Source: Collybia mongolica (Eukaryota > Basidiomycota > Agaricomycetes > Agaricales > Clitocybaceae). From it: DNA of 64,000 nucleotides. Positions 39,277-62,913 of the stretch are shown one piece after another (the stretch's first letter is position 1; each line of letters starts with the position of its first letter). The stretch covers positions 930,001 to 994,000 of the forward strand of contig JAAXNY010000005.1 in NCBI GenBank assembly GCA_013420905.1. Direction: 5' to 3'. The notes under the pieces were generated by a model. The model searched no databases. It was not told where the DNA came from and was given only the letters and a program-made list of their open reading frames with translations. Made by a program: the position numbers and the translations under genes.

Positions 39277-40911
39277 CTACACTTCAAGTGTTTGTCCGCC
39301 CTTCGCCCCACTGCCTGCCCGAGAATGCACAAGCACGAGCCTCCTCAGTGTACTGTGTCTCTGTTGAACTCCCGTCACCTCTGCTGATGGGTCGCCGACG
39401 TCGACTCCTGGGGGTCCACTGCGGTCCTTATCCTGAGCCTTCGTAGCAGCGCCCCACATTCGACTTAAGAAGCTGCTAGAGGCGCCCGATCTGGGAATAG
39501 CAGGCAGAGTGGTGCTAGAAGACAGACTGATGTCGCGCCAGCTACCCCGCATCCCATCGTTCTGAGAAATACTTCCTGGCAGAAAAGATCCAGACGACAG
39601 GCGCTTACTTTCCCGTTGAAGCCGAGCCGTGCGCGCGGTCAAGAAGGCAGGAGCAGGTGGCGTTGGCGCAGGAGAGGAAGCCGTGATTGTATGCACAGAG
39701 GACGTGTCTGAGGGCATACGAGCTCGAGCCTGTGTCAGATGCTGTGACCTATATGTATATGACGGCGTGGAGCGGTGGATGAACGGCTTCTTCACTGGCG
39801 TTCTAGCAGCAGGCTCATCACTTCCCCCTCGCTGAATGGGCTCGAAGGTGACTCCGGTGGTATGCAACTGCCCTTGATACACCTGTGCGGAACTCCCATC
39901 CTCAGAACATTCGTCTTCTGAGCTTAGCCAGCCTGAGGACGACGATGAAGAACCGGTATCGTCGACAAGAGAGCCCATCTCAGACGACGAAGACGAAGAA
40001 AGAGAGTCTGTGCTTAGGGCGGTATACATAATCGAAGGGATGGCAGCTCCTTGACCCGAGCGTGCAGAGAGATGTGGGGGAGAGAGGCGTTTGGCGACCG
40101 TTGCTGACAACAGTTCCCGAGGCGGACTAGAGGGTGAAGGAAGATCCTCCGGAGGCGTAGCGGGAGCTTGAACCTGCTGAGCTCTTGCCTGTGCTCTAGC
40201 CCGACCTGCCTTCGCAACCTTGCTCACGGCCGACGCCCGGGTGCTGGCGTCCTGCGCTTGCCGGGTGTCCGATGACATGAAAGGTGCAAACGCTCTACAC
40301 GCTTCAGTCTCGTCGAATCTAAGATCGTAGTCGAGGAGATAGAGAAGCTGCTTCTCCATGAGGTTGATCTCTTCGATGTCGAACAGGACCGCGTAGTTCG
40401 CCCAATGGCAGTTCTTGGGCGAGGAATCATTGAGGTACTTGGCGGTGACGATAAGCGTCGCGAGGAAGACTCTGTGGCGTGTACAGGGCATTCCTACAGA
40501 TAAGATTAGCCCGATTAAGCTTGGAATAGCGGCGGCTGACTGACCTTTCGCCATTGCGGGCAACTTCGTGTGGAGCCGCTCGAGGTAGATCAACGTCGTG
40601 AGAAGTGTAGATACTTGTACATTCGAACACTTGACGAGATGAAGGATGAAGTTATCCAAAGAGATCATCTGCTGGGTGGGCGGCTCCGTAGGGTCGGCCG
40701 GGGATGCCTTGTGGGGCGTGGGAGGAGGGGTCGGGATGCCTGCCGTTGGCGAAACCTCGCCGTCAATATGGATCACTTTCGCTGCTTGGCGAGCAACGTA
40801 TTGTATCATATCCATTGAAACCTGCTTTCCCACGAGCTGAACGAGATGAGAGTTGTGGGAGCTAAGAGGAACAAGCGAGGCAGGGTGACGGCGTGAGCCT
40901 GAACCAGGCAT
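39277..40911 (-). CDS. Pho85-type (PCL) cyclin
   Basis: One frame from ATG 40911-40909 to the stop at 39277-39279. An N-terminal region leads into a cyclin box: [75 protein letters not shown] and [17 protein letters not shown]. This is the PCL1/2-type cyclin fold that activates Pho85-like kinases in G1 and polarity control. The ~300-residue tail is Ser/Pro-rich with [14 protein letters not shown] acidic-serine clusters, probably phosphorylated and unstable. A 51-nt GT-AG intron (40494-40544) sits in the middle of the cyclin box. It is a multiple of three without a stop, so the retained form would add 17 residues there. Confidence 0.88.
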
Positions 40912-40959: not shown

Positions 40960-41392
40960 CCCCGTCAAGGGATGTATAAACGAAAGGAAAAATGAGAATG
41001 AGGGAGAAAGGAAGATCAGCGTAGTTTTATTTAGAGAAAAGGGGTTCACATATCATACGTAAACAAACGCGCTTCGATCACGAGACATGTAGCACGTGGT
41101 GACTTCAGCCTCCCTCGTGACCTTGATTTTTTAAAAGGTCAGGTCTTCAAGCTTCAGCTTCAGGAACGTCAACTTGAATTTGAGTCTCTCATCAGCATCA
41201 GATTCATGGCTATCAGCCTCTGGTTCATAAAGCAAGATCAAATTGACCCGGGATCGTTATCGGGACAAGCCAAGTAAAATCCGAGGCAGACTCACCACTA
41301 AGGTTGTCGGACCGCCGGCTCCCGCCGAAATTCCAGCCTGTTCATGGGGATGGAGGAAGATTGGAGCTGGATGTTTAACTGTGCCTGCTTTC
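40960..41392. promoter_or_regulatory. Divergent promoter region between cyclin and FGGY kinase
   Basis: About 430 bp shared by two divergently transcribed genes. Two GAAGCTT-type strings and direct CTTCAAGCTTCAGCTTCAGG repetition occur near 41147-41165, but no factor can be named. Confidence 0.35.
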
Positions 41393-43536
41393 ATGTCAAC
41401 TCAGAGCCATTATATCGGCGTGGATGTTGGAACTGGCTCAGCGAGAGCCTCTCTAGTGAAGAAGGATGGGACGGTTGTCGCTTCCTCGACCCAGGAAACA
41501 ATCACCTACCGCGATGCCCATGATCATAGGATTTTTGAGCAATCGACATCGAACATCTGGTCTGCTATTTCAAGAGCAATCAAGAAGTGCTTGGACGACT
41601 CTCAAGTGCCGGCATCCACTGTGAAAGGTCTAGGTTTTGATGCAACATGTTCTCTCGCCGTAACCGACCTAAAGGGGGAACCCGTAATTGTAACCAAAGG
41701 TAATCAACTCGGACAGCTTGGGGACAGGAACATTGTGCTATGGGCAGATCATCGAGCGGAAAAAGAGGCAGATTTGATCAATAGTACCGGATCCGTAGTC
41801 TTGGACTATGTGGGGGGGACCATGAGTGTGAGTTCGCATATCTTTTATTTGATATGAGTTTTATTAAAATGATGTAGTTAGAGATGGAAGTACCGAAGAT
41901 TTTATGGCTCAAGAACCACATGGAACCCAAATTATTCGAGCGCTGCCAATTCTTCGATCTTCCTGATTTTCTCACCTACCGTGCCACCACGGACAGTACT
42001 CGATCTTCCTGCTCAGTCACCTGCAAATGTTCTTTTGTACCAACGACCGGATGGCAGTCGGACTTTTTCCAAAAGATTGGCCTCGGTCAACTCGTTATAG
42101 GTGGATATGAGCAAATAGGAGCTGCAAATGGCAATGTGCTCACCGCTGGCCTCCCGGTTGGGAGGGGCCTGTCAAAGACAGCTGCAGAGGAGTTTGGCCT
42201 CGAAGAAGGAACGCCTGTTGGAAGTGGCTTGATCGACGCGTATGCGGGCTGGCTGGGCACTGTTGCGGCGAGATATAAAGACAATGGGAAGTTGTCTGAT
42301 GTCATACCCTCTCTTGATGAGTCACGACACAGACTGGCTGCAGTGGCCGGTACCAGTACTTGTCATATCGTGCAGGTGAGTTCTCGGTTTTAGGCTAAAG
42401 GCGTCCGTTAAAGCATACCTATCAATAGAGTCCTAAAGGAGTCTTCGTCGACGGGGTGTGGGGCCCATACAAGGTAAAATATTTTCAATAAGTACAACAC
42501 ATTTGCTCAACCCCCATAGGATGCTGTCTTTCGTGACTGGTGGATGAACGAGGGCGGACAATCCTCGACGGGTCAGGTAAAGCTACATAAATCTCAAGCT
42601 TGACAGTTCTTATGAGCGAGAACAAAACACAGCTAATCGACTTCATACTCACCACCCATCCGGCGTATTCCAAACTCGTCAAGCTGGGGGACCAACAGCA
42701 AAGAAATATCCACAGTGGTACGTTGACTGCATCACAATCAACAGGACCAGGGCTGACCGCCATCCAGTCCTTCAGGATACTCTCGAAAAGCTAAAGACCG
42801 AGAAAGGTGCAGAAACCCTGACTGAATTGACGAAGGACCTTCACATGTACCCTGACTTCCATGGTAACAATACCTATCTATTATTAACCCTGTGCTAACG
42901 AATAATCAGGCAATCGGTCGCCAATAGCTGACCCTCGCATGCGGGGCTCCTTCGTGGGCCTCGAACTTGTACGCCAGTGATCACTTTATAGTTGCCTCCA
43001 TCATTGATTAATACCATAGGACGATGGGCTCAACGACCTGGCTAGGAAATACAACGTGACTCTTGAAGCCATCGCACTCCAAACCCGCCACATAGTCGAC
43101 GAGATGAATTCCAAAGGGCATAATATCACGTCCATTTACATGAGCGGTAGTCAGGCAAAGAATACTACCCTCATGCAATTGTTCGCAGATACGTGTAATA
43201 TGTCGGTAGTGTTGCCGTCTGAGCACTCAGATGCCGTCGTTTTGGGCGCTGCTATGCTCGGCCGTTTTGCGGCTGAGGCCGCGGAGGTGGGAGGTAAAGA
43301 AATGAGTGGAAAAGAACAAGCTGAAGTTTTGTGGAAGATAATGGTTTGTGGACTTCGATCATTCTTGCTTAAACTTACGGTATCTTAAGGTCGAAATGAC
43401 CCCAGTTGGGACTCTGGTCTCTCCCGCAGCGACGGGCAGAGAGAAGAAGTTACTGGAGGCAAAGTATAAAATATTCCGAGAGACTATCGAGATTCAGAAG
43501 CGGTGGAGGAAGGAAATGGACGATGCGTTAAGTTGA
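41393..43536 (+). CDS. FGGY-family carbohydrate kinase
   Basis: Start chosen at ATG 41393, giving MSTQSHYIGVDVGTGSARAS; an upstream ATG at 41371 is out of frame. Further motifs are GLGFDATCSLAV, NIVLWADHRAEKEADLIN, PKILWLKNHM, FFDLPDFLTYRATTD, GSGLIDAYAGWLGTVAARY (GxxDAYAG, catalytic Asp), AVAGTSTCHIVQ (ATP-binding), DWWMNEGGQSSTGQ, GNRSPIADPRMRGSFVG, YMSGSQAKNTTLMQLFADT and AVVLGAAMLG. At least six short introns are inferred. The closest pattern is the eukaryotic FGGY/YDR109C type that phosphorylates pentuloses such as D-ribulose, using ATP in the cytosol; the exact sugar is inferred. The two catalytic halves are intact and length is normal (about 590 residues). Confidence 0.9.
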
Positions 43537-44170: not shown

Positions 44171-45976
44171 CTAATGATCATGGTTAATAACTGATGAGAC
44201 GGGATATTTGGGTTTAGTTTTAGAGTTCGATCGTATCTTGCGCCGTACCCGGACCTGCTGGATAGCGCGAATAGCCATTGCGGTGGTCACGCCGTCGTTT
44301 TTGATGAGGATACCAGATGCCCCATATTTGTAAAACCAACCATTGCTCCACGCTCCATTACCGTCCTGCAGAGAAAAGAGCGTTTCGAGGTCACGATCGT
44401 CCCATAAATCGACAATTGTCCCTGCGATAATCCGTGCAGCTAGAGAAAGTGCATCTCCCTCCGCTCCGAAGCGTTCTAATATTCTTTCTTCGAATATAGA
44501 CCTGAGGCGTTGGCGCACTTCGGAAGAAGTTTGGAGAAGGCGGGACACGAAGTACAAGAATAAGTCGGCGCTAGCGTAGTAGTATGTCCCGGAAATGTAG
44601 GCGCGATTGATCAAGACTTGTTCAATCCAATCAAGCGTTTCAGGAAGTTCAGGACCTCTTCCGTTCTCGTAGAAAAGAGTTAAGACATTGACACACACAA
44701 CAGGATCTAAGCCGAGCGATAAGTTAGGGCGTAATGAACTACCACAGGGAAAATCTGGGAATCACCTATGCGAGGGCGTGAGTGGTCGAAGTATACTTGG
44801 ACTATTCCATCCGAGTTCCTGTAGTTGAGCATTTCATCCATGACTTCGTGTTTCGTAAGGGTATCGACGTGGTCTGCAACGGTGAGTCCGATCGACGTTG
44901 TATCGAGGTCATTCCTGATCGAAAGATGAGGTTATATTGGCCAGAACGAGAAAGGCCGTATTTGCTCACGGAAAGGATTCGGTGGTGAGCACACCACCGT
45001 TCTTGAAGAAATTAAATTGCCCCACATGCTTCACGTAGTCTACCAGTGACCTTTGAAAAATAAGAAATGTTAATAAAAGATGACGGGTTAGATCTGAAGA
45101 GTAGCGGGACTTACTTATCTCCTGTAGCATCAAGGATCAGAAGTTGGCCAAAGTTCTGGAGTAAAGATTCTATTGGCTGGAGCAAATGAGAGGGAAATAA
45201 CGCTAGGCCATACCTCAGAGAGCTCAATGTTGTTCGAGGTTACAGAGATATGTTTCTTCTTGTGGGAGGTCAAAAACTTTTTCCCTCGCATTATCGGATC
45301 ATAGCAGAGATTTTTGAGCTCTCGGATTACTTTTATTTCGTCATCGAAGACGATTCCATGCATCCCAAATGATCGGGCAGTCAGGACGTTCTCGAGCTTG
45401 TCATCAACAAATATTGTACGAGAAGGTTCTACTCCAGTCTTCTCAATAACATGCTTGAAGAAACCAATATTTGGTTTGCGTTCGCGCGCGGCCGCACTGC
45501 ACATAATCGCCTGTTAGACAGCCAACCGCTGAGTCGATCAAGTGAACGACGTACGATGTGAATACGCGATCAAAAAGTGCCCACTCCTCAGGAGTGGCTT
45601 TCGTCTGTAACACTTCCCAGTCTGGCGCAGAGATATTCGACATGGCGTATATGGCAAGCCCCGCATCCCGTAGCTCTCGAATTATTTTAAGCATAGTGGG
45701 GCTGCTCTGAAGAGAATCACGGGCAGCTTCGAATGCGCCTTTTGCATCGGTAGGAGAAATATTGAACTCCTGCGCGACGAGAGCATATACTTCTTCTTCA
45801 CTGAGATTGTTCTTTTCGTATTCAAACCAGTGATGAGAACGAAGGATGTTTTTGAGAACCTTGGCTGGAAGAGGGGATTTTGGAGTAGAGGCAGACCAGG
45901 TGAAGAGAACGTCACCAAGGTCGAATACGACGGCCGTGTAGCCTTTCGACCTTGCCGAGTGACGGAAGTTGGCCAT
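44171..45976 (-). CDS. HAD-type terpene cyclase with DLDTT motif (AstC/drimane-synthase-like)
   Basis: Seven exons join in phase. The N-terminal half is a HAD fold: VVFDLGDVLFTW (Asp nucleophile position, but Gly at the usual second Asp), LAIYAMSNISAPDWEVL, ARERKPNIGFFKHVIEKTG and SRTIFVDDKLENVLTAR. The C-terminal half is an alpha-barrel cyclase: NFGQLLILDATGDK, YVKHVGQFNFFKNGGVLTTE, then NDLDTTSIGLTVADH with the class II-type DxDTT motif, MDEMLNYRNSDGIVQVYFDH, SRPR, DPVVCVNVLTLFYENGRG, SGTYYYASADLFLYFVSRLL and GNGAWSNGWFYKYGASGI. This layout matches AstC-like fungal sesquiterpene cyclases that protonate farnesyl diphosphate to drimane skeletons. The product and whether phosphate is removed are unknown. 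Neighbouring P450s, BBE and SDR suggest the pathway's core enzyme. Confidence 0.85.
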
Positions 45977-46027
45977 CTAGATAATAGAATACAATCGTAA
46001 AGCTATCACTTCCCTCCCTTTTTATCT

Positions 46028-46360
46028 CTAGAAACCGGGTAGTAGTTCTCTATTCATAACCTCCGGCTTGATCTCCGTGAACCGTGAGGAAGCTTGGGGA
46101 GTTAGATAAAGATGCTTTGGCCGGACGCCTTCCGAACCAAACGAGGTATATTCGGAAGTAGGAGGCGGTGCATAAGGAACATTTTGGTCTAAGAAGCCAG
46201 AAATAATAGGTTCGAGGGGATAGCGAGAGCCAGGTACCACGGGGGAATATTTGGCCGGTCTGCCGATGAACTCGGAATATGTCTGCGATCGTCCTATAGC
46301 TATGGAGACCTAAGCAACCCCAGAAGATTTGCCAGATTGTGAAAATTCCGTCATACTCAT
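46028..46360 (-). pseudogene. Small unrecognised frame with one in-frame stop
   Basis: From ATG 46360 a frame of 111 codons is open apart from one TAG (46312-46310): MSMTEFSQSGKSSGVA, stop, then VSIAIGRSQTYSEFIGRPAK, YSPVVPGSRYPLEPIISGF, PYAPPPTSEYTSFGSEGVR and a tail ending NRELLPGF. The CTTAG could also be a splice acceptor. The tail reads like real protein, but I do not recognise it. It lies just upstream of the terpene cyclase on the same strand. Confidence 0.3.
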
Positions 46361-48010
46361 TTTAGTACTGCATAATGTAAACCTGTAGATCCAGTGTGGC
46401 GGTTAGCGCAGCAGTGGGAAATATATTGGTTCCTTTATCGAGTTATCTCCTCGGGTGAATTATATTCTGTGTCGAATAGACGAAACCCAGATAGAAACAC
46501 AAAAATGATGATACAGCTCGACCTCGTAGCAGTGATTCGAACTTTTGAAAGACAGATTTCTATTTGGTGATGTTTGTCCATTCTGTCATAATCTTAACCG
46601 CTATGGCTGATGTCCGAGTTCTCCTTTCTCCTCCAGCAGCATCGGCTCCGGTAGAGTCGGTTGCGGTTTTGCAGTAGAAGTCGCCCTTCCAAGTCTGTTC
46701 AATGCACGTATTACGACTTGTCAATTCGGACGGTTGATTTCCTTCCTCGCACAATTTTCGCCGATCACGAATCAGTCGTGGTTCGCGGTGGTAATGGCAT
46801 GATAGTGAATCCTCATGCCAACCCCTCTGGTAAGGTGCCGATGCTGCCGTATAGTGTGCGTTTCAAGTGAAGGCTGTAATCTCCACAGAACCGATCAAGA
46901 GAACCCATACTCTCCTCTACCTCCAATGGGGACACTTTGGGCCCCTGGGGATATCTACGATAGGTAGCGTTGGCTAATTATGTGGCTGATCATGAATTCA
47001 TTATACTAGGCGATAAGAATTTGGTCAACGTAGGTGGAAGAATAAAAAAATCAGATTGGTCTCGTAATTCGCTGCCATTTTGAAGCCGCATCAAGGGTGG
47101 CGGAACCGGACACCGGACTTCCGGTTGGGGAGAGCGGGGCCCGAGTCCAAAATACCCTCGTACCGTAACAAATTGACATAAGATGGTCATGTGGAGATAC
47201 CTCGAAGTCCTTTGGGTTGGCGAATTACCTTCTACCCTTGAAATTCGTCCCTATCAGTCCCAGATGACCGTGACTTCTTGGTACAAGGTAAGGTCTAATG
47301 CAAACACAAGCTCCCGATGGCACAGCACCCGAACCAATCAAAGTTGTGTCTTGCAGGTCGCGAAGGTGATTTTGATGTCGTTGGTACCTAACCCCCAAGC
47401 CTCTACGCATACGTCACGTTATGACTTTTATCCTATGAAAAGCGGTCATGCGTAGAAAAAAAATACCATACGAGGTACGAAGCCACAGTTCCACCGAGTC
47501 ATTAGAAGGTCATATTTTCCGCCACCCCCTTGAGTTATCTTTACACTATTCTTACCCCCAAGTTATTTGGTACTGCCCCAGCGCTCAGCCTTGGAGTGGA
47601 ATGGAACAATGCATTGGTGCAACGCATGTGCAAGATAGACAGATCCTCCGCCCCAGACCGATATAATAGGGTTAAATTTAGTTCCCCAATGAGAAGACGG
47701 TGATAGCATTATTTTCGCTTCATAGCCTCAATAACTCGCGTACCTGGATCTCCACAGGTTGCCACCGTGTATTTTCTTTCCTCCGAGACGAATTATGACC
47801 TTCTTTGCCAAGTCTAGCGACAATACAATCTGTGTTCGAGAGATGTCCCCATGTACGTCGTTTCGCTGGTTCTTTCTTTACGCGTTGATAAGCTACACTT
47901 CAATCATAATTTTAGCTAAGATTCTTTTATCTAGATGGAACCATCATACGATCAGAATCTAATTCTACAACAGTTACGTCCATTTAGTACATATTTTTTG
48001 GTAACAGAAC
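46361..48010. other. Spacer inside the cluster, no gene recognised
   Basis: Short frames only (for example 47183-47455). Nothing with motifs. It contains the first copy of the direct repeat described next. Confidence 0.35.
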
Positions 48011-48154
48011 CAGAGAATCCATGTCCCCACGTATGTTGTTGCACTGGTTTTTTTTTTTACGCGTTGATAAGTTACACTTCAATCATAATTCTATTTAAAG
48101 TTTTTTTTATCTAGATGGAACCATCATACAATCAGGATCTAATTCTACAACAAG
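47838..48154 (+). repeat. Direct repeat of the P450 3' flank
   Basis: About 135 bp is present twice, at 47838-47971 and 48016-48154: ATGTCCCCA.GTA.GT, TTTACGCGTTGATAAG.TACACTTCAATCATAATT, ATCTAGATGGAACCATCATAC, ATCTAATTCTACAACA. The second copy ends at the stop codon of the P450 gene (48157-48155), so the 3' UTR region has been duplicated in tandem with about 180 bp spacing. Confidence 0.9.
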
Positions 48155-50087
48155 TCACTTCCTTTTCCTAAAATCAATGTACAGATCCTTCGGTAAGCTA
48201 AGGGCGAACGCAGAAAATCCATTTTTGGGATAATCCTTGTGCGGTGAATCGTTCGGCAAGGACCACTCCCAGTTTTGAAGAAGCAAAGCGGTGAGAGTCC
48301 TGAGTTCGTACATCGCAAAGTTGCGGGCGGGGCATTGACGGGGACCAAGTGCGAAGGGCCTAAAAAAACATATTTAGTAATATCCAGGGCGTTTGGAGAG
48401 GCGATAGTTACAGCCATAGACTGGCATCCACGCGAACCTCATCCTTCTCTGACTTGCCCAAAAATCGCTCTGGGAGAAAGGACGCGGCATCCGGCCAGTT
48501 TGTCTCGTTGTGGTGGATTGAAGTGATGTTGAAGATGACAGAGGTGCGGGGAGGGAGATAGTACGTTTTCCCGTTTGACGCTTTTAGGTTTGCGGGTTGC
48601 GCAGATGCACGAGGGACCATGTAAGTCTAAATATTCAGTGGTAAGATATTATTTAAAATATAGACGACCAGGTGACTTACGATAGGCGTGTTGATCCGCA
48701 GCGACTCCCGGATACAGGCTTGGACGAAATTCATTTTACGCAAATTGGTGACGTTCGGTTCGTCGTTTCCCAGCGCCGATAAAACTTCTTCACGAGCCCG
48801 TCTCTGGAGCTCTGGTTGCTTCGCCAGATAGTAAACCAGGCTGGACATTGCGCCCGCAGTAGTATCCTGTCGCCAGGCCGTCAGACACAGAACAAACAGA
48901 CGATGGAGAGAATACACACATGACCCGCAATGAAGAACACGACCCTGGAGTAGTAAGTGAGCTCAAATTCGTTGAAAGCAGGTGACCAGGCAAATACATG
49001 TTATCTCGATACTCTTCATCAGTCATTCCCGGTTCCTCCAGCATATAGGTGAGCATGTCATTCCCTTTGTTTTCTTTTTTGTGTGTTAGAATACCCTGGA
49101 ACTTTGACACAAGGCTATCGATGTTGGCGATGATCTTTTTGCGGGGGAACCAATTTTCAAGTTTAGGGAAAACGATGAACCTGTGGAGCAGAATTAGCAA
49201 GTATGGCGAAAATTTATAAACGACCTACAGGGGATTCGAGATCGCGTCCATTACTTCGTTGTATTGTCTGACAAAGGGACTGTGGTCGTCCTCGATGGCG
49301 CGGAAGTCGTGTCCAATAGCCGTTGTCCCTATCAACAACGCATTCAGGACTTGTGTTCGACAGCATCAGATTCAAATTTTGGAGGACCTACCAACAGCAT
49401 CTAGAGTAAAGCGCTGTTATGTTGTTTCATTAGCTATGTTGGTGGACAATGCGATGGAAGCGAACGCTACCATCGTATAATCGTCCCATTTGATTAATCC
49501 GCCGTTGCCCATCTTCGTGAATAGCTTGTGGGCCAATGATGCAAACTCGTGGATGGGAAGGTTCCGAGATAGTGCAGATTTAACAACGTGAGAGTGCCTT
49601 GTCCAGGCTTCTCCGTTGGAGAGAATAACGTTGGTCTTCCCGACGAACCTCCAGAGCAACATCTCATCTGGTATTTTGTTAGTGTTCAGCTCTCACAGGG
49701 AGAGATGGCTATACCCACCAGGTGGTTCTTCCTTCGGCCAAAGGCTAATGTTTTCTGACAGTTTTCTAGCGATCTAAGTGAAGAGTAAGCGAATTGTATT
49801 ATACAGTTCATCCCTTCTGTTACCTGATGGTCAAGTACGTGCACGATCCAACGTCCAAGGGCGTAAACCAGCACGACGCCTTCCCCCTTTTCATTGGCAA
49901 AGGGCAAAAGAAGGCGCTTGATGCGAACATCTTCAACCTCGCCCGATGCATAGCTCCAAAGGAGGGGGATAATGGGAGCTCTAGGGAGACGGCGAAGTTC
50001 TGCAGGGGGGGTGAACGCCCATTTGGCGAGGACGAAAATTAAGGCAATGGGGAGCAGGATTTGCCAGCCTGCAGGCAAGTCTAACAT
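48155..50087 (-). CDS. Cytochrome P450 (cluster gene 1)
   Basis: Start ATG 50087-50085. A membrane anchor (WQILLPIALIFVLAKWAF) is followed by PPAELRRLPRAPIIPLLWSY, ENISLWPKEEPP, LWRFVGKTNVILSNGEAWTR, HSHVVKSAL, TLDAVGTTAIGHDFRAIED, an I-helix VVFFIAGHDTTAGAMSSL, the ExxR motif in QACIRESLR, RASAQPANLKASNGKTYYLP, NWPDAASFLPERFLG (PERF) and the heme loop FALGPRQCPARNFAMYELR. The stop is at 48157-48155. About nine exons are inferred; two small mid-gene exons near 49400-49500 are the least certain. The heme loop has Pro-Ala after Cys, a known variant. It is an ER-bound monooxygenase, likely hydroxylating the cluster's terpene scaffold (inferred from position). Confidence 0.88.
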
Positions 50088-51573
50088 GGCGAGAATAGTG
50101 AGAACTTGTGGTAAATGAATCGTAGACGTAAGGGTCAGCTGTTTTAATTAGCCCAGTTCAGCAAATTTAGAATAAGCGTTAAAGTAAACGCGTGTGGTTA
50201 TTTCCGCGCCAAAGCGCCAAGTCCACGGTGCTAATTTCATACCGAGTTTGCGACCAGGAGCCTACCACGGCTCTTAGGAAATTTCAAACTTTAGATGTCA
50301 ACTCTGCATCACAGATCCTACGAGCGCGGCCGCAATCAGGTTCTGAAAGCGACACTGAATGATGCTGCCAGCACGCGCGGGACAGATAGGTCCGTGTCGG
50401 TACCAAAGAGTCGACAAAGTAACAAGTTGACGGCCGTAGAGTCAGGACAATAGGTTCCATCTCCGGAAAATGAATCACATAGTGGAGTCGTGAATTGAAT
50501 AGCGATTTTTTTTTTTTTTTGAAACGCAGACTGATTATGCGACCGAATAGCCTGACGTTGGCATATGCATGCGGTGTATCGGTCATTCCACCGCATGCCT
50601 GTCATCATCCAAGCTGGTTACAACCTTCGGTCCGATGTTACCGGAAAAAATGCACAGACATTATGTGCCTTGCCTCAGCACGCCGCATTAGGGCTGACCA
50701 TGTACGCAGCAGCCTAAACGTCTGAACCCACCGAAAGTCTACTACTCTTGACGTGCAGCATCAATAAACATCATGATGTATAAACTGTAACAACTGTCTG
50801 TCTAGTATCAATCAACTGTGGAGTATTGTTAGGTAAACTTGGGCATGAACATCCTTCCAACTCCAAGACACGATCTGTGGGGTTTGGTCGTCGCGTCAAA
50901 AGTATATCATGATGGTTACTTCTTGATAGACGGACTCTGTACGCACGCTACAGGACCCGTTGGTTGTTCACGTAGTTTGAAATACATATTTATGAGACGG
51001 CGCTTGAAATAGAATGATGCGGCCGGTGTTCCAGGCACAAGCGACAACGGTATCATACCCCACGACTATCATCCCCACTGGAATCTCTGTATGTGATACA
51101 GAGTACTGAATTGTGATTGAGTAACTCGGGCCCTATCACACAAACATACCGCATTGATGAGATCGCATCGTCCACAGTGACAGATACAAGGGGCCTTTTG
51201 GATTTTGATCTCCTGCCTCTGCGTATGCATGACATGAAATATCAGGGGTCTATTCTGTCCAGCTCCGATTCCTGCTCCCGCGGTTTCTTGGTTCTCACAG
51301 ACGTTTCTTATTCAGGAACTATGATACAGTTCGGGGGCGGTGTCGGCCACACATGGGAATTTCGCGTATGGTTTGTCGCCACGGCTTCAAAGTTAGATAT
51401 TTGCCACCCACCTGAACTAGCCGCCGGATGGCTGTGCTCATTGAAGTTGAAACAACGTGGATACGAGCTCTAGAGTGGTTTGATGAGCTGTGCGACGAAG
51501 AGGCAGGAGAGCGGTAAGACTTTCGCACAGCAAATAATAAAAAGATGAACGGGTATTATGCTCAAAAGGAATT
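50088..51573. other. Divergent spacer, no gene recognised
   Basis: A 118-codon plus frame at 51117-51473 shows no motif. A T-run lies at 50505-50521. The region contains promoters for the P450 (minus) and the BBE-like gene (plus). Confidence 0.35.
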
Positions 51574-51580
51574 TATAAAT
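51574..51580 (+). promoter_or_regulatory. TATA box of the BBE-like gene
   Basis: ATTTATAAATAC lies about 50 bp upstream of the ATG at 51631. Confidence 0.6.
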
Positions 51581-51630
51581 ACGTAGACCCTATCGCAACT
51601 GGTCTCGTGTTCCTTGCTTGTCCCTCCGCA

Positions 51631-53692
51631 ATGCTTCAACTTCCATATCTAGCCTTGGCCCTCGCTGCGGCAGCCCTATCCCCCGTTGGCGCGGCGGCTA
51701 CCTGCAAATGCCTTCCCGGAGATCCCTGCTTTCCAAGTCAGCAGACGATTTCTGCGTTCGAAAAGAACCTTTCTCATCCTCTAATTCATCCCCGTCCTGT
51801 CGCCGCCGTTTGCTTCCCGCATGACCCGAGCTTCAACGCCGCCGCCTGCGATGCCGTCAAGAAAAATTGGAACAATGGCGTGTTCCGCGCCTCTCTTCCA
51901 AACACCTTCCAATTCACCAATTGGGAGTCCATCATTAACTCCACGACCATCAAACAGTGCGACCCGTTCGGAAATGTTAACGACCCCGCCGATGTGTGTT
52001 TCCAAGGAAGAATACCTTGGGGAGTTGTCAATGTCACAAGGGTTTCCGATATTCAACAAACTTTGAGTTTTGCCTCGAAGCATAACCTCAAGCTGGTAGT
52101 CAAGAACACTGGGTGCGGTTTATGTTTTAATTTCTATGCTATTAATCCTAAACTGTCTATCAAAGGCACGAGACGTTGGGCCGAAGTGCAGGACAAGGGT
52201 CTATTATGCTATGGACCCACAATCTGCAAGATATCAAACTTTTCGATAACTTCGTCCCCAAAGGTGCTCCCCAGGGCACTCGAGGTGCTGCTAGTACGTA
52301 AATCTTTTCGAATCCATTCTGACGTAAAATTCATCTCTCGCAACGTAATCTAGCCGTAACTATTGGAGCTGGTGTCAATTGGGCGCAACTGTATGATGCT
52401 GTCGCAGCGCACGGTAAAGTTGTGGTCGGAGGTATCGGTGCAGGAGGCACAGTTGGAGCCGGCGGTGGCTGGCCCATGGGAGGCGGTCATAGTATTTTGG
52501 CACCCTTTTACGGTTTAGGTGCGCTAGTCTTGACTAATGAGAAAATACGGACCTAAAGGAATTACCAGGTGTCGACAACATCGTCGAAGAAACGGTTGTT
52601 CTTCCAAATGGCGTATTTGTCATCGCCAACAAATACACTAACCCCGACCTCTTCTGGGCATTGCGTGGGGGAGGTGGTCCTAGTTTTGGGATCCTCACCT
52701 CTGTCACGTATTTGACCCACCCGGCAGAGCCAGTCACAGCTGCGTTCCTAGTCAGCCACACGACGAGTGCCGAGGCGCGCCTTGCCCTCTTCAACGAGTG
52801 GATCAAAGCCCACCCCGCCCTCATTGATGCAGGATGGGCTGGCTTCTGGCCCTACAACGGCAACCAGTTCTTCCTCACGCTCATGGCCCTCGGTAACCCC
52901 CCAACCAATCCCAAGGCAAATTCGACTCTCCAAGGGTTCTACGACACCATCTCGCGGATCCCTGGCGTCGCCATCGACCTTGAAGTGACGAAGCCGTACA
53001 CGGGATTCCAGCAGTGGTACGACGAGAACTTTATCAATAGCCAGCTGGGAATCGGGTTCAACTATACCGTTGGCGACTTCAGTGGGGTCCCGCTTGCCGC
53101 TGCCTCCGTCTTGATACCCCGCTCGAACTTTGAGGAGAATACCGAGGCATTGGCCAAAGCTCTCATAGCTCTCGACAATGCCCGTCCATTGTACGTATAG
53201 ATTCACTCCACCCCAGGTCCTATCCAAATTCATTTCGTTGCTTTTGCATAGCCTTATTGGAGGTGGAGCAGTATCGAAGCCTGATCCTGACGAGATGGCC
53301 GTCAACCCTGCCTTCAGAGTGATGCTGAGTGACCTTACCATTGCTCTCAGCTGGAACGCCTCTACCGCGACACCCCAGGACATCCTGGCGGTTCGACAGA
53401 ACGTCACGCGGTTGGCGAATGGTGTGAGGGCTGTCGCGCCAGATGCTGGTGCCTATGTCAATGAGGTCGGTTGATGTTCAGCGTCTCCAGGTTCGGGGAT
53501 CATAGGAAACTAATGAACGAGCTTTCTTAGGCTGAAATCTTCGAGCCCAACTTCCAGAAGGCGTACTGGGGAGATCATTATCCCCGCCTTCTCGCTTTCA
53601 AGCGCAAGATTGACCCGAAAGATCTACTGATCGTTTTCCAAGGTGTGAATTCGGAGGGGTGGGATGATGAGGTTATTTGCAAGACTGAGTGA
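51631..53692 (+). CDS. Secreted BBE-like FAD-linked oxidoreductase
   Basis: Start ATG 51631 gives a signal peptide, MLQLPYLALALAAAALSPVG, cut near GAAA. Then CKCLPGDPCFPS, WGVVNVTRVSDIQQTLSFAS, KHNLKLVVKNTGHETLGRSA (TGH with the His that binds FAD), GQGSIMLWTHNLQDIKLFDN, VTIGAGVNWAQLYDAV, GKVVVGGIGAGGTVGAGGGW, GGGHSILAPFYGLG, VDNIVEETVVLPNG, ALRGGGGPSFGILTSVTY, SMW-free substrate domain, and a C-terminal BBE motif: EIFEPNFQKAYWGDHYPRLL, AFKRKIDPKDLL, stop 53690-53692. The PCMH (FAD) and BBE domains are complete. The second covalent Cys of dually linked enzymes is Gly here (single covalent link expected). Such enzymes oxidise alcohols or make rings in secondary metabolism. Confidence 0.88.
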
Positions 53693-54082
53693 GGGCAGCT
53701 TTTCCGCAAAGGCTGATACATTTATTTCACGCTCGTTTTCCCAACAATTTCCTAGTCATTATACTCCTTTGTATTTACTATACCTTTATTAGAGAAACCA
53801 TTATAGAGCATGATGTGTTTTGAACTCGTGAGGTTTGAAGAGGAAGCAATGAGAATTTTAGGAGCCTCATGCGCGAACCGAATGCCTTTGGTGCTCTGTC
53901 CTTCAAGGCTATTATTCACAAGCTCAGGAGCACCCTCAGTATTGGCACCCGCCAACATGTTTGATCATGAATGGTTTGTTGACTAAAACACTAGTATTCG
54001 TTTTTTCTTTCTAATCTCAACATACATGTACTGTGATCATATTGACCTATGACGACGATAGAAACGCAGTGAGAAAACAAAA
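53693..54082. other. Convergent 3' spacer
   Basis: Spacer between the 3' ends of the BBE-like and SDR genes. Nothing recognised. Confidence 0.4.
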
Positions 54083-55227
54083 CTAGTTTCCCAAAGCCAC
54101 GAGGAGGTTTTTAGAGTACTCTGGTGGGTCAATACCGTCAATGTTCGTAGTATGGGCAATATCCGCCCATTTCTCGGCATCGGCGATTGTGTTCTGGGCT
54201 GTAAAGCGAATAAGAGTTACCGCATCACTCCCAAGCTGAATCCTCAAAGGCAAGTTCTTTTTCTCAGACAGGACCAGGAACGCTTTGGCTGCCCTCTCCG
54301 GACTGCCGATGAAAGGGATGAGGTTTAGCATGGCACGGTACTGGCTTGTTGGGGAGTGCTCTGCCGAGTATGCAGGGTGTGGGGGCAGGATGGTCAAGTC
54401 GTTTCGCCAGCTGGTGTTGAACCCTCCTGGTTCGACTGCGGAGGCTTGGATGTTCCATTCTGGTAACATTTCTTTCCGGAGAGACTCAGTGAATCCTTCG
54501 ATCGCTAAAGTCATATGTCAGCATTGAATGAGAAGACGTTGAAGAGTAACAGTTCAGGCGTACCGAATTTGGAAGCGTTGTAGTACGACAACAAGGGCTG
54601 GGATGTATATCCTCCAGTAGAGCTGAGGTTGAAAATTCGGCCACCTTTGCCTGGGGGGTTGACCTCGCGGAAAACCCTGATCGCCTGGAGGGAAAAACGT
54701 ATCAGTGAATGTTTTCTTCTTCGGTTTTGGTAATAAGTATTACCTGCTTCATGACGTGGACTGGTCCCCAAAACATGATCTCAAACTCAAGTCGAGCCAT
54801 ATCCATGGGACACGCTTCGATTTCTGACAAGACTGCCTAAATCGGGAATCAGGGAAAAGTCATCGCGAAATGGACGGGACCGACATATCCAGCGTTGTTC
54901 ACAACAACATTGATCTCCCCGAATTTCTGGAGCCCTGCGTCAAAGGCCGCCTTAATGTCCTCGGGATTTGTGATGTCGACTTTAATAACCAACGCGCGTT
55001 TTAAAGTCTCCGCATCGTATTTTTTTTCGAGTGCTGCTTGAAGGATTTCGGGCTTGCGCGCGGTAGCCACGATTGAATGGCCTGAGCTGAGGATTTCATG
55101 CAAAAGGGCATTTCCGAGCCCTGATGTCGTGCCAGTAACTGCCAATTGGATGACAATGATGTTAGATAAGTGGGAAGAATCATATGCTAATGGAGCACAC
55201 ACCAAACCAAACGCTCTTTTGTGCCAT
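54083..55227 (-). CDS. Short-chain dehydrogenase/reductase (cluster gene)
   Basis: Start at 55227-55225; the first exon MAQKSVWF joins over an intron to VTGTTSGLGNALLHEILSSG (TGxxxGxG cofactor loop), IVATARKPEILQ, VIKVDITNPEDIKAAFDAG, INVVVNNAGYVG (NNAG), MARLEFEIMFWGPVHVMKQ, GRIFNLSSTGGYTSQPLLSY (catalytic Ser) and YNASKF (YxxxK), AIEGFTESLRKEML, ASAVEPGGFNTSWR and a C-terminus ending NLLVALGN-stop (54085-54083). The catalytic Ser, Tyr and Lys are all present. Length (about 290 residues) is usual for the classical SDR family, cytosolic, NADP(H)-preferring by the Arg after the first strand (ARK). It probably interconverts a hydroxyl and a ketone on the cluster product (inferred). Confidence 0.9.
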
Positions 55228-55276
55228 TTGTTGATTATGAGGGACTTGAGGATGGACTGATTCTTGCGAAGTAGGC

Positions 55277-55284
55277 TATATATA
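55277..55284 (-). promoter_or_regulatory. TATA element of the SDR gene
   Basis: TATATATA lies about 50 bp upstream of the SDR start codon at 55227. Confidence 0.55.
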
Positions 55285-56024
55285 CGGTAGATAAGAACAC
55301 GGTATATTGGCTGATGCGCGATATACCCAACCAGGCAGGTAGATATCGATTGCGTGGCACGCCAATAGAGCGCTTATACTTCACTCGAAGTTTATTGACA
55401 AGGGCCGTGGTCCGCTCCTTCATAGGCCACATGCCAAAATGTCCTCCCCAGATGGATCTCCGGGCTACCTCCCGATGGCAGAAAAGTCTTCTATGATGAG
55501 ATCGGTGCTGTAAGCTTGATGATAAAAAGACCGTTGCTACAAGTAAAGAACGGGGGTAGAGTAATGATCCGATGATAAAGGTGTACCAAGGATAAGTGAA
55601 CCATAAATACCTTCGAGGATCTTGATAGAATCTTTAGTTCATATGTAAAATTTGCTATCACTGATGTGAAGTAAATCTTAACAGGCGTTTCGGTTCATGG
55701 GCTAAGGCGTGTGAAAAAAACCTTTGACCCCATGGCACTAAGTATTACTCCGAGTCCATATTGACGTTACAAGTTACTCTTACGCATTCACCAAAGCGCC
55801 AAAGATACGAAGCAATATGAAAAAAATTGGCAGAAGTATTTTCACTTACAGAACCCAATTAGCAATCGCCGAATTTTTTAACAATCGTGTCCGACGTGAT
55901 GTTACCATCAACCACCTTGGTCTGTCTATTAATATTGCTGCCCATAATTACTAGCGATACCATGACCAAGTCCCCCCCTCATAGATATAGTCCCAGTCCA
56001 GTCCAGTGCAGCTAGTATTCATCG
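55285..56024. promoter_or_regulatory. Divergent promoter region, SDR and P450 2
   Basis: Intergenic region between the divergent SDR and second P450 genes. A short frame at 55314-55496 has no motif. Confidence 0.35.
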
Positions 56025-58211
56025 ATGAACTCATTATCTATCGTAGTTCTCGTCGTCGCTGCCAGTGCCACGTGTCTTATCTATCGTACTTTTCAAAAGT
56101 CATGGAAGAGCCTACCTTTTCCTCCAGGTCCCAAACCTCAATTTATATATGGCAATGCCAAAGATATGCCGCATGAAAAGTCGTGGATCGGGTTCCATAA
56201 CTGGGGCAAGAAATACGGCAAGTAATTTCCTGAGTTGGCTCGGAAGCCCTACTAGTAGCATCAATGTTAATTCTACTACTGCTTATTAGGCGGTCTCATC
56301 TATTTCAGGATTTTTCAGACGAAATTCGTGGTCATCAATGACCACAAGATAGCGTTTGAGCTCCTCGACAAACGCTCAAACCTTTATTCTGACAGGCCAA
56401 GGAGCCTCATGCTCGATTTGTACGTTTATATATTTTCGACTTCGACTGGATTTCTGATCAAGGGGAATCTCGAATCTTCCTATAAATAAAGACTTGGATG
56501 GGGATTTAATATGACCTTTTTCAATTATGGGGCAAGATGGAAGGAACATCGACGTGTCATGCATCAGAACCTTAACAATCGTGCTGTTCGTGAATGGCGC
56601 CAGCTGCAACAGGATATTACCCACAGGTTTTTGAGGAAGCTTGTCGTCGATCCTGATGACTGGCTTTATCAAATTGAGCAGTACATCTCATCGTTTCCTC
56701 CATTTATGCCCGGAAGCTGACCAATCCCTATAGTCTTACAGGATCAGCAATCATGAAATTGTATGTATGCCGTCGATATGATCATGATTGGTCTGACTTT
56801 GCGTGCCTATGTATCAGCACTTACGGTTATGACCTTAAGGAGAAGGACGAATATATGCTAGTGGTCAAGAAATCTGTTGAGGCTTTGACCGCGACTCAAG
56901 GAATCGGGTTCATGGTGGATAAGGTCCCTATTTGTATGATTTCACTCTTTTAGAGTTGTATACCTCCCGCTCAATCTCGAACTGACAGTGAAATATGGTT
57001 GGCCGATACATTGGTCATGAGTCGAATACTGTTAACATATCTGCTTTCTCTGTATCTGTTTAGTTCCATCTTGGTTCCCTGGCGCTCATTTCAAGAGATA
57101 TATAAAGGTGATGCGACCATACTGCGAACAAATGCTGGAGGGACCATTTAGGACCACAAAAGAGCTTTGGGAAAGTTTTTTCATTTTTTTTTTCTACTTA
57201 TAATATCACGTTTTCTCACTTTCTTTGCAGATCGCTGGAAAGGCGGCGGACTCCTATGTCACACGATTGTTTGAAGAATTTGGAGGGGCCCAAGTGCCTG
57301 AAGATAAGGAACAGATCATCAAAGACACGTCTGCTGTGCTCTATGCGGGTGAGCAATGCCGTGTTCCTCACCTCGTTCATGATCTGATCGTTTATGTTTA
57401 AAGCTGGAACGGATTCGGTTAGTCACCATTGGAACTGTTTTCTTGGAAACTCTAACCGTTCGTAGACATATGCAATCCTAAGTTCGTTTTTCCTGGTGTG
57501 CACGTTGTACCCCGAAGTTCAGAAGGTGGCCCAGGAAGAAATTTTCCGGGTTATTGGAACGGACCGTCTCCCTACATTTTCTGATAGAGAATCGCTGCCT
57601 TATATCGATGCGATGGTGAAAGAACTTTTTCGTTGGAATCCCGCCGCTCCACTATGTAAGCAACTCAGTCAATCACATTCAACAAACCACCTCATAGGGC
57701 ACACCCTAGCACCCTCGCATCAAATCCTTGTTGACGACGAGTACGACGGATACCTTATTCCCGCCGGGACGATCATTCTTCCAAATATCTGGGCGATGGG
57801 ACATAACGAGGAAATCTACCCAGAACCGCTCACCTTCAATCCCGAACGGTACCTCGGCTTGGAAGAGGAAGAAGCGAGAAAGATAGACCCGAGAAATTTC
57901 ATCTTCGGCTTTGGTCGCAGAATATGCATCGGTCAGTACTTTGCAGACCAACAGGTGTGGTTGGCTGTTGCGTGCCTGCTAGCAACCTTCGATGTGAAGA
58001 AAGCGAAAGATGAGTTTGGGAAGGAAATTGTTCCTGTTCCTAATTATACAGAGTTTGTTGGGTATGTTTCGTTGCAGCCTCTGACGTGGAGTTTAGACTC
58101 ATGGTGCTCGTATCCGTCGCTTTTAGATTCCCGGATCCGTTTCCTTGCATAGTGACAGTCCGTGATGCAAATGCTGTCAAACTCATCGAGGAAGCAACTA
58201 TCGAATCATGA
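56025..58211 (+). CDS. Cytochrome P450 (cluster gene 2)
   Basis: Start ATG 56025. Anchor MNSLSIVVLVVAASATCLIY, then LPFPPGPKPQFIYGN (proline hinge), GFHNWGKKYG, VVINDHKIAFELLDKRSNLY, SDRPR, FFNYGARWKEHRRVMHQNLN, STYGYDLKEKDEYM, VPSWFPGAHFKRYIKVM, IAGKAADSYVTRLFEEFGG, an I-helix ending AAGTDS..TYAILSSFFLV, the ExxR motif in AMVKELFRWNP, PAGTIILPNIWAMGHNEEIY, FNPERYLG (PERY) and heme loop FGFGRRICIGQYFAD, which has Ile in place of Pro after Cys. The final exon ends LIEEATIES with the stop at 58209-58211. About ten exons. This resembles fungal O-methylsterigmatocystin-oxidoreductase-type P450s. Decayed pieces of it exist at 7.7-8.5 and 63.3 kb. Confidence 0.88.
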
Positions 58212-61164: not shown

Positions 61165-62880
61165 CCGAGCGCTCAAAGATCCAGCAGCAGTTCGCAGATC
61201 TCAAGTGTGGATGTAACAGATGAAGAGTGGAAGAGCATACCAGAAGTGGGAAATCTGACGAGGAAGAAAAGGCGAAGGGAGGAAAGGTCATTTGTAGTTC
61301 CCCACGGTATTCTTGGCGGAGACAGAAGCAAAAATGAGTACGAAAGTTCACTGAATCCTCGACAGCAAGAGGTATGGAGCTCCACTTTGTTGTTTATCGT
61401 TAATTGAAACATTCTCTTCAGAACCTGACTCTGGCGCACTCACCAACTTTGTGGAAATTGGTCAAGCTTGAGATAAGTATTAAGATCCTTTCTCTCAAAC
61501 TAGGTCAGGTTTGTTCTACTAGAATTCTGGTTTATATGACTTGATCCTTTTATTAGATATCTGGCACTACGACAAGTTCAGGATCGGCCGCTTCTGTAGA
61601 TTCCAAAGGATATTTCACGTCACTCAATAGGGATGCTGAAGCTGGTGATATCAAACGGGTACGAGTGCTTTTCGAATCCATGATCAAGTCCAATCCAAAA
61701 CGCTCACCCGGTTGGATTGCCGCTGCTTGTCTGGAGGAGCACGCGGGATGAATGGAGGGTGCGAGGAAACTCATCAAGGCGGGATGTGAGCAGTGCCCGA
61801 AAAGTGAAGACATCTGGTTGGAGTCAGCGAGGCTTCATGTAGGTGCCCCGTTCATCATATTGGCAATATACTGAGACATACACTTACACGATGTCAGAAT
61901 AACGACGATGCTAAAGTGATATTTGCCAATGCTGTCCAACATGTTGGGCAGAGCGTCAAAATCTGGCTAGCAGCAGCAGACTTGGAGCACGACGTCAAGG
62001 CTAAATAACGGGTGCTACGAAAAGGTCAGTTGTCCCAAATATTTATTATCATTTGTTTGATTAAGCAATCGCAAACCACAGCACTTGAACATATCCCCAA
62101 TTCTGTGCGGCTATGGAAGGAAACAGTCAATCTTGAATTCTCCTCCGCAACTGATGCTCGGATCCTCTTTTCGCGTGCTGTAGAAGTCATCCCCTTATCC
62201 GTCGATTTATAGCTTGCCCTTGCCCGACTTGAAACCCCCGAATGCGCGAAAGCCGTCCTCAACAAGGCTCTCAAAGCCGTTCCTACGCCACATGAGATTT
62301 CGATTGCTGCTGGTAGGTTGCTTGAGCAGCAAGCAGTGGTGGAAGGAAAGGCTGAGGCAAAGCGAAACAAGGAGTTGGACATTGTGGATAAGACCATCGC
62401 GGCCGGTATACGAGAATTGAGACGGCGCCAGGTGTTGTTGACAAGGGAAGAGTAGTTAAAAGAAGCAGAGAGGTGCGAGAGCGAGGGATTCTCCAGGACT
62501 TGCGAGGCAATCGTCAAAGCGACTGTAGCAATGGAAGTAGAGGAGGAGGATCATCTGGACATTTGGGTAGGAGATGTAGAAAGTGCCGAAGCTAGAGGGA
62601 AAGTGGGAACCGCGCGGGCAGTCCTGGCATTTGCTCTGAAGATGTACCCAGATAGGACAACCTTATGGATGAAGGCTGCAGAGTTGGAGAAGACCCATGG
62701 ATCGGGTATGTGTTTTGAGGATGCTGTTTATAAGGTTGTACGACTTCCTTCTTATAGGGAAAGTCTGGATGCAATACTTAGTAGAGCAGTGCATCATTGT
62801 CCACGGGCTGAGGTTCTGTGCTTGATGGCAGCCAAGCTGGCGACGTTCCCACTGCGTGTGAACTTGGTCGTACTGATTTT
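61165..62880 (+). pseudogene. PRP6 pre-mRNA splicing factor pseudogene (internal part)
   Basis: The text follows the U5/tri-snRNP protein Prp6 in order: KIQQQFADLK (out of frame with what follows), [181 protein letters not shown] and HAT repeats up to AVHHCPRAEVLCLMAAK. Four in-frame stops occur at 61749, 62006, 62210 and 62453; three of them replace Arg (CGA) or Trp (TGG) codons expected in the family. Intron-like joins remain, so it is a genomic copy, missing both ends. Confidence 0.85.
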
Positions 62881-62913
62881 GCACTGCTAAAAGAATTGGT
62901 GGTGTCGTTTCGA

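What the first reader, a model, noticed from the sequence alone, without database searches (positions are those of the whole stretch)
44171..58211. Candidate sesquiterpenoid cluster built on a HAD-type DxDTT terpene cyclase
Five genes in 14 kb fit one pathway: a HAD-alpha-barrel cyclase with DLDTT (44171-45976), a P450 (48155-50087), a secreted BBE-like FAD oxidase (51631-53692), an SDR (54083-55227) and a second P450 (56025-58211). AstC-type cyclases make drimane sesquiterpenes in ascomycetes; a compact basidiomycete cluster with a BBE-like oxidase would be a notable variant. The sequence shows the motifs and the proximity; that the genes work together is inferred.
Basis: partly seen in the sequence, partly recalled or inferred. 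Interest (0 to 1): 0.78.

Follow-up and report, generated by a model that had tools for sequence, protein, structure and literature searches.

The report
Mushroom sesquiterpenoid cluster around HAD cyclase
A mushroom chromosome carries neighbouring genes that probably make an oxidised C15 terpene, starting from a two-domain cyclase of a kind already known from other mushrooms; the cyclase and one P450 also sit together in several other mushrooms, while the other neighbours are less certain members.

Summary
In detail: five genes lie at the stated coordinates. Four splice into complete proteins: HAD-type DLDTT cyclase (503 aa), P450a (483), BBE-like FAD oxidase (590), SDR (304). The second P450 has a junction that no tested join reads while keeping both conserved sides; it may be broken. 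The cyclase matches the AstC crystal sequence over residues 11-478 (E 9.9e-103) but, unlike AstC, keeps the HAD motif-I Asp, as does the drimenol synthase of 9mhs. In a quick tree it falls in a 20-row clade (SH-aLRT 99) with a Taiwanofungus enzyme whose motif is the one printed for AncA, a monocyclofarnesol synthase; so "drimane" is not secured. Cyclase-P450a linkage recurs: 9 of 32 species named in both lists share a contig, crude expectation 1.2, and a second such pair lies in the same genome. BBE linkage is patchier and not seen in the three closest relatives; SDR and P450b have no outside support. Basidiomycete HAD-cyclase clusters are already known (antrocin). Verdict: real, largely intact, a new member of a known kind; supported core is cyclase + P450a.

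The parts
44171..45976 (-). HAD-type terpene cyclase; exons 45976-45555, 45496-45214, 45155-45115, 45050-44970, 44914-44766, 44706-44171; 503 aa; HAD motif FDLGDVLF (exon 1), DLDTT (exon 5)
   Evidence: gene model; AstC 22tz E 9.9e-103; HAD Pfam; Collybia nuda homologue 90%
48155..50087 (-). cytochrome P450 (P450a), 10 exons, 483 aa, heme motif FALGPRQCPA
51631..53692 (+). BBE-like FAD oxidase, 6 exons, 590 aa, flavin-linking His context VKNTGHETLGR
   Evidence: gene model; PF01565 and PF08031; homologues
54083..55227 (-). short-chain dehydrogenase/reductase, 5 exons, 304 aa, YNASK
   Evidence: gene model; PF00106
56025..58211 (+). second cytochrome P450 (P450b), one junction unresolved, possibly a pseudogene; includes a proposed GC-AG intron 56218-56289 and a proposed 9-base exon 56989-56997
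57175..57230 (+). stretch between the two readable halves of P450b; no join tested keeps both conserved sides

Best explanation
A sesquiterpenoid gene cluster whose supported core is a HAD-terpene cyclase plus P450a. The cyclase's C-terminal domain protonates farnesyl diphosphate through the DLDTT Asp and cyclises it (class II); its N-terminal HAD domain, which keeps the motif-I Asp that AstC has lost, removes phosphate, so the enzyme releases a cyclic alcohol or its monophosphate (inferred). P450a then oxidises the skeleton; the BBE-like oxidase, if it takes part, oxidises a hydroxyl or desaturates, probably outside the cytosol (inferred). SDR and P450b are possible late-step enzymes without independent support. 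The skeleton is either monocyclofarnesane (AncA-like) or drimane; I lean slightly to monocyclic. Shown: intact genes, homology, conserved residues, recurring linkage. Inferred: the reactions and their order.
For: Intact models. Match to AstC residue for residue 11-478. DxDTT Asp pair and the partners Asn324 and Tyr361 of AstC numbering are kept (roles from PMC13244436 sections 12 and passages of 14). HAD motif FDLGDVL equals that of the 9m7d/9mhs drimenol synthase, where AstC reads VELKDIV. Linkage: cyclase and P450a homologues share a contig in 9 of 32 species named in both 120-row lists, crude expectation 1.2; on contigs under 400 kb 5, expectation 0.1. A second HAD-cyclase domain with a P450a relative 0.7 kb away at C10:784669-787706 of the same genome. 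P450a-BBE on one contig in 4 of 22 species, 3 of them on contigs of 19.6-76.6 kb.
Against: No expression or chemistry. In 23 of 32 species the listed homologues do not share a contig. The BBE-like gene is not on the cyclase contig in C. nuda, Panaeolus or Galerina, and the best C. nuda BBE row is only 39% identical. Termitomyces cyclases of the same clade are reported to have no P450 or oxidoreductase within 30 kb (PMC10126200). P450b may be broken. An intact 94%-identical copy of P450a lies on C1 without a HAD-cyclase in the 26 kb read there, so P450a can be elsewhere.
Confidence: 0.7

Rival explanations
1. One reading: all five genes form one drimane pathway; the cyclase makes a drimane alcohol.
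For: Family founder AstC and the basidiomycete AncC make drimanes (passages of PMC13244436; PMC10608071); the aromatic pocket is partly kept: F230, F257, F268, Y361, Y446, Y448; a drimane isolated from Termitomyces matched one reported from Clitocybe conglobata (passage); compact neighbourhood between a sugar kinase and a TPR protein.
Against: Nearest identifiable characterised relatives make monocyclic products; SDR and P450b lack outside linkage support; P450b unresolved; BBE not linked in the closest relatives.
Confidence: 0.25
2. Monocyclofarnesane pathway: the cyclase stops after the first ring, as AncA and Termitomyces DS3 do, giving a gamma-monocyclofarnesol-type alcohol that P450a and others oxidise.
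For: 20-row clade (SH-aLRT 99) holding the window enzyme, Taiwanofungus P0014 with DDRIE (printed for AncA; AncC has DDKIE) and Termitomyces P0009/P0010 of DS3-like size; DS3 gave monocyclic nectrianolins (PMC10126200 section 9).
Against: P0014 = AncA and P0009 = DS3-like are identifications by a five-letter motif and by mass, not by accession; the branch joining P0014 to the window clade has support 81 only; AncC itself was not in the tree; DS3 was also called a possibly dysfunctional drimenol synthase by its authors. The window enzyme's own motif is DDKLE, which is neither.
Confidence: 0.48
3. Chance neighbourhood in an oxidoreductase-rich genome: only the cyclase and P450a belong together, the rest merely lies nearby, and part of the set is decaying.
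For: P450s are abundant (110 match rows, lower bound); no independent linkage for SDR/P450b; a truncated copy of the SDR/P450b 5' halves lies 110 kb away; P450b junction.
Against: BBE shares small contigs with P450a homologues in Dendrothele, Dentipellis and Hericium, in Dendrothele together with a HAD-cyclase.
Confidence: 0.3

Closest known systems
AstC of Aspergillus oryzae (astellolide cluster; PDB 22tz, 22ty)
   Same: HAD + TC two-domain architecture, alignment over query residues 11-478, DxDTT pair, Asn324 and Tyr361
   Different: AstC has Glu at HAD motif I and lacks phosphatase activity (PMC13244436 passage); the window enzyme has Asp. About 40% identity; Lys314, Lys451, Ser450 and Gln265 of AstC are Arg, Ser, Ala and Thr here.
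AncA / AncC of the antrocin cluster, Antrodia cinnamomea (= Taiwanofungus camphoratus)
   Same: basidiomycete HAD-cyclases clustered with P450s (AncB, AncE) (passages); P0014, AncA by motif, is 58-60% identical
   Different: sequence of AncC, AncB, AncD and AncE not available to me; whether that cluster holds a BBE-like gene was not checked. The original paper (Chen et al., Angew. Chem.) is not in the library and was not seen.
Termitomyces DS1-DS3
   Same: HAD-cyclases; Termitomyces rows P0007, P0009, P0010, P0012 lie in the same 13-row clade
   Different: no P450 or oxidoreductase within 30 kb in strain T153 (section 9); DS3 makes monocyclic alcohols, DS1 and DS2 were inactive
AsDMS, bacterial drimenol synthase (PDB 9mhs, 9m7d)
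   Same: HAD motif I FDLGDVL and DDK.EN; TC-domain match
   Different: bacterial; makes drimenol; much more distant
ancA cluster of Sanghuangporus (ACEPAI_7410, P0025)
   Same: basidiomycete HAD-cyclase in a predicted cluster (PMC12001456 passages and section 18)
   Different: 57% identity; falls in another 17-row clade of the tree

Membership tests
HAD-like terpene cyclase (HAD-TC) | N-terminal HAD domain | tested here: met
   PF00702 35.3 bits, cut-off 26.4; PF13419 28.1 bits, cut-off 23.8
HAD-like terpene cyclase (HAD-TC) | C-terminal class II TC domain with DxDTT | tested here: met
   AstC TC construct 22ty matched at 9.2e-69 over residues 206-479; DLDTT in place. The local Pfam copy gave no TC family for it
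HAD-like terpene cyclase (HAD-TC) | acid network Asp273/Asp271/Asn324/Tyr361 (AstC numbering) | tested here: met
   all four present in the window enzyme; the AstC chain itself carries the crystal mutant N273
HAD-like terpene cyclase (HAD-TC) | cyclises FPP | not testable with these tools
   needs enzyme assay
AstC functional type (no phosphatase) | degenerate HAD motif I (Glu13) | tested here: not met
   Asp in the window enzyme
AncA-like clade | groups with AncA in a tree | tested here: inconclusive
   20-row clade SH-aLRT 99 holds P0014, but the nearer branch has 81; P0014 is AncA by the motif DDRIE only; AncC not in the tree
Biosynthetic gene cluster | cyclase and P450a linked in other species | tested here: met
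   9 of 32 species share a contig, 5 of these on contigs under 400 kb; lists capped at 120 rows
Biosynthetic gene cluster | BBE-like gene linked in other species | tested here: inconclusive
   with P450a 4 of 22 species, with the cyclase 3 of 21; not in C. nuda, Panaeolus, Galerina
Biosynthetic gene cluster | SDR and P450b linked to a HAD-cyclase elsewhere | not tested
Biosynthetic gene cluster | co-expression | not testable with these tools
   no RNA data
Berberine bridge enzyme-like (BBE-like) | FAD-binding domain plus C-terminal BBE segment | tested here: met
   PF01565 67 bits, PF08031 36.2 bits
Berberine bridge enzyme-like, bicovalent flavin | both the His and the Cys that bind FAD (recalled) | tested here: not met
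   His context VKNTGHETLGR present, the second site reads GGIGAGGTVGAGGG without Cys; same in most of the 21 top homologues printed

The most novel reading that the evidence does not exclude
HAD-cyclase + P450a (+ BBE-like oxidase) is an old, repeatedly reused mushroom module: the same P450 family travels with HAD-cyclases of different clades (window type, Dendrothele, Schizophyllum, Roridomyces, Lentinus, Serpula) and twice within this genome, and marks an uncharacterised family of oxidised monocyclofarnesane or drimane metabolites with a late FAD-oxidase step outside the cytosol.
Probability: 0.35. Interest if true: 0.55.

Novelty: new member of a known kind. Interest (0 to 1): 0.42.

Why it matters
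HAD-cyclases are missed by the usual class I sesquiterpene-synthase models, and in basidiomycetes only a few have a known product. A P450 family that recurs next to them gives a handle for finding such pathways in mushrooms, and the window enzyme, with an apparently complete HAD active site and a place near both monocyclic and bicyclic producers, is a good test of what decides one ring or two. For the field it is a useful new case, not a surprise.

Tried and rejected
Second-P450 repair by alternative splicing: all stop-free GT-AG or GC-AG joins across the junction were listed (12) and none kept both conserved sides; a truncated copy of the region on the same contig did not settle it, since it lacks the acceptor AG too. 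Idea that SDR and P450b form a duplicated working pair: rejected, the copy at C5:1096-1099 kb covers only window 54559-55719 and 56294-57398 (83% and 82%), i.e. the 5' parts of both genes. Idea of a decayed glutathione transferase gene at 46.6-47.4 kb: three reading frames gave no Pfam match. CxA instead of CxG in the P450a heme motif as a sign of decay: rejected, 108 of 120 listed homologues have the same Ala, 2 have Gly, 10 did not match the pattern. RNA families in 40000-64000: none at gathering score. Structure prediction was not run: the AstC crystal match already settles the fold. Literature: eight searches listed no paper on this cluster or on a HAD-cyclase cluster with a BBE-like gene; the library holds open-licence PMC papers only, so this is weak evidence of absence. 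Placing the own-genome C10 TC domain in a tree failed to give a supported position (branch 2.27).

Limits of the linkage test: contig lengths were transcribed by hand into; only species with names in the 120 printed rows were compared; one shared long scaffold is weak evidence; the random expectation assumes 45 Mb genomes and ignores assembly structure. The own genome has no relatives held, so real synteny could not be drawn.
Full report
Setting. The window is C5:930001-994000 of an unnamed 45.97 Mb genome in 26 contigs. The cyclase is 90% and P450a 92% identical to Collybia nuda proteins, so the organism is probably a close relative of that mushroom (inference).

Genes. Splice models were made by hand from translations of all frames and GT-AG pairs. 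Cyclase: 503 aa, six exons, five introns of 55-64 bases. P450a: 483 aa, ten exons, introns of 48-63 bases. BBE-like: 590 aa, six exons. SDR: 304 aa, five exons. P450b needs a GC-AG intron (56218-56289) and a 9-base exon (56989-56997) to fit; even so its two readable parts (to 57174 and from 57231) are out of frame with each other. Twelve stop-free in-frame joins exist across the place and each loses one of the two conserved sides. It may be a pseudogene, an assembly error or a case of unusual splicing. Neighbours outside the set: a cyclin (39277-40911), an FGGY kinase start (41243-41857) and a TPR protein piece (62531-62887).

The cyclase. phmmer against PDB chains gives AstC (22tz) at 9.9e-103 over residues 11-478, the AstC TC domain (22ty) at 9.2e-69 and the drimenol synthases 9mhs/9m7d at about 1e-50; the HAD part alone also matches YihX phosphatases (2e-11). 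On an alignment numbered by the AstC motif, D271, D273 (N in the crystal mutant), N324 and Y361 are kept. Positions that bind the diphosphate in AstC differ: K314 is R, K451 is S, S450 is A, Q265 is T; F309 and F360 are Y; R314, Y309 and Y360 are shared by all twelve non-AstC rows compared. At HAD motif I AstC has E13, the window enzyme D, with FDLGDVL as in 9mhs/9m7d. The JACS 2026 paper (PMC13244436; [quoted passage not shown] So the window enzyme is expected to be a working cyclase-phosphatase, unlike AstC (inference). One caution: the paper names Asp166 and Asp167 of AstC, on my map 166 is Asn and 167 Asp, so numbering there is not exact.

Which branch. A quick tree of 73 rows (60 best homologues, 11 others, AstC, the window enzyme) puts the window enzyme with C. 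nuda (100), in 13 rows of Agaricales (99) and in 20 rows (99) that include P0014 of Taiwanofungus camphoratus, whose join to the 13 rows has support 81. P0014 has DDRIE, the motif listed for AncA; AncC is listed with DDKIE (PMC10608071 passages). AncA makes (R)-trans-gamma-monocyclofarnesol, AncC (+)-albicanol. Termitomyces rows P0009 (56.3 kDa) and P0010 (55.5 kDa) lie in the 13-row clade and resemble DS3 (57.2 kDa, no hydrophobic tail) in size, while P0072 and P0074 (60.1, 60.7 kDa) resemble DS1 (59.5). DS3 made monocyclic nectrianolins; DS1 and DS2 were inactive (PMC10126200 section 9). The nearest identifiable characterised relatives are therefore monocyclic producers, by indirect identification. 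Against that: AncC could not be placed, the window enzyme's own motif is DDKLE, and a drimane found in Termitomyces matched one reported from Clitocybe conglobata (passage). I give monocyclic about one half and drimane somewhat less.

Linkage. The protein search prints contig length and often a locus tag. The cyclase and P450a homologues share a contig in 9 of 32 species named in both 120-row lists: Collybia nuda (360,512), Panaeolus cyanescens (74,578; tags CVT24_006369 and _006362), Galerina marginata (3,405,100), Dendrothele bispora (76,605), Schizophyllum amplum (192,446), Roridomyces roridus (1,304,583), Punctularia strigosozonata (2,122,796), Lentinus tigrinus (215,369) and Serpula lacrymans (2,944,186); crude expectation 1.24, and for contigs under 400 kb 5 against 0.11. 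The other 23 species do not share one. P450a and BBE: 4 of 22 (Dendrothele 76,605; Dentipellis fragilis 55,120, tags g2277 and g2280; Hericium alpestre 19,601, tags g4773 and g4777; Wolfiporia cocos 3,454,563), expectation 1.24; under 400 kb 3 against 0.13. Cyclase and BBE: 3 of 21 (Dendrothele; Marasmius tenuissimus and Paramarasmius palmivorus on long contigs), expectation 0.89. In C. nuda, Panaeolus and Galerina no listed BBE row is on the cyclase contig; Panaeolus has several 71-76% relatives on other small contigs, C. nuda and Galerina only rows of 38-39%. So cyclase + P450a is a well supported core, BBE a labile partner.

Own genome. Besides the window, cyclase matches lie on C4:3405119-3406726, C10:784669-785469 (TC part), C10:799738-800391 (HAD part), C11:714890-715390 and C9:3066010-3067663. 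The C10 TC part is followed 0.7 kb later by a P450a relative (786136-787706, about 50% identical), then a P450 of the P450b kind, an SDR and an FAD-binding monooxygenase. The stretches read around C4, C11 and C9 (10-20 kb each) hold no P450a match. P450a also has an intact copy on C1 (455 of 483 residues identical, no exon indel) and a distant one at C10:204130-205726.

Accessory genes. The P450a heme motif has Ala for the usual Gly in 108 of 120 homologues, a family trait. The BBE-like protein keeps the flavin-linking His and lacks a Cys at the second site. A truncated copy of the SDR/P450b 5' parts lies at C5:1096-1099 kb.

What is known. Basidiomycete HAD-cyclase clusters exist: antrocin (ancA-ancE; AncC with P450s AncE and AncB; passages of PMC12001456, PMC11026467, PMC11035983; the original paper was not seen) and a predicted ancA cluster in Sanghuangporus (PMC12001456). 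The finding is a new member of that kind. What may be new is the recurrent P450a family and the occasional BBE-like partner.

Conclusion. Observation confirmed; interpretation partly supported; core = cyclase + P450a, BBE possible, SDR and P450b open; product unresolved between monocyclofarnesane and drimane.

Noticed in passing
G000 C10:784669-790000 and 799738-800391 (L033, L034, L035): Second candidate terpenoid locus in the same genome: a TC domain without its HAD part, a P450a relative, a P450b-like gene, an SDR and an FAD-binding monooxygenase; a HAD part lies 14 kb further on.
   Followed up: partly
G000 C1:2495034-2496957 (L040): Intact copy of P450a, 455 of 483 residues identical, 91% DNA identity through introns, with no HAD-cyclase match in the 26 kb read there.
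   Followed up: partly
G000 C5:1096-1099 kb (L058, L059): Truncated copy (82-83% DNA identity) of the 5' parts of the SDR and P450b and of the stretch between them.
   Followed up: yes
P0092: A protein named Pendulispora rubella, a bacterium, is about 50% identical to the window cyclase and falls among fungal rows (support 98) in the tree: possible gene transfer or contamination.
   Followed up: no
window 47840-48150: Two similar direct copies of about 130 bases just beyond the 3' end of P450a, partly shared with the C1 copy's flank.
   Followed up: no
G000 C11:714890-715390 and C9:3066010-3067663: Two further HAD-cyclase-like loci, the C9 matches with stops inside.
   Followed up: no
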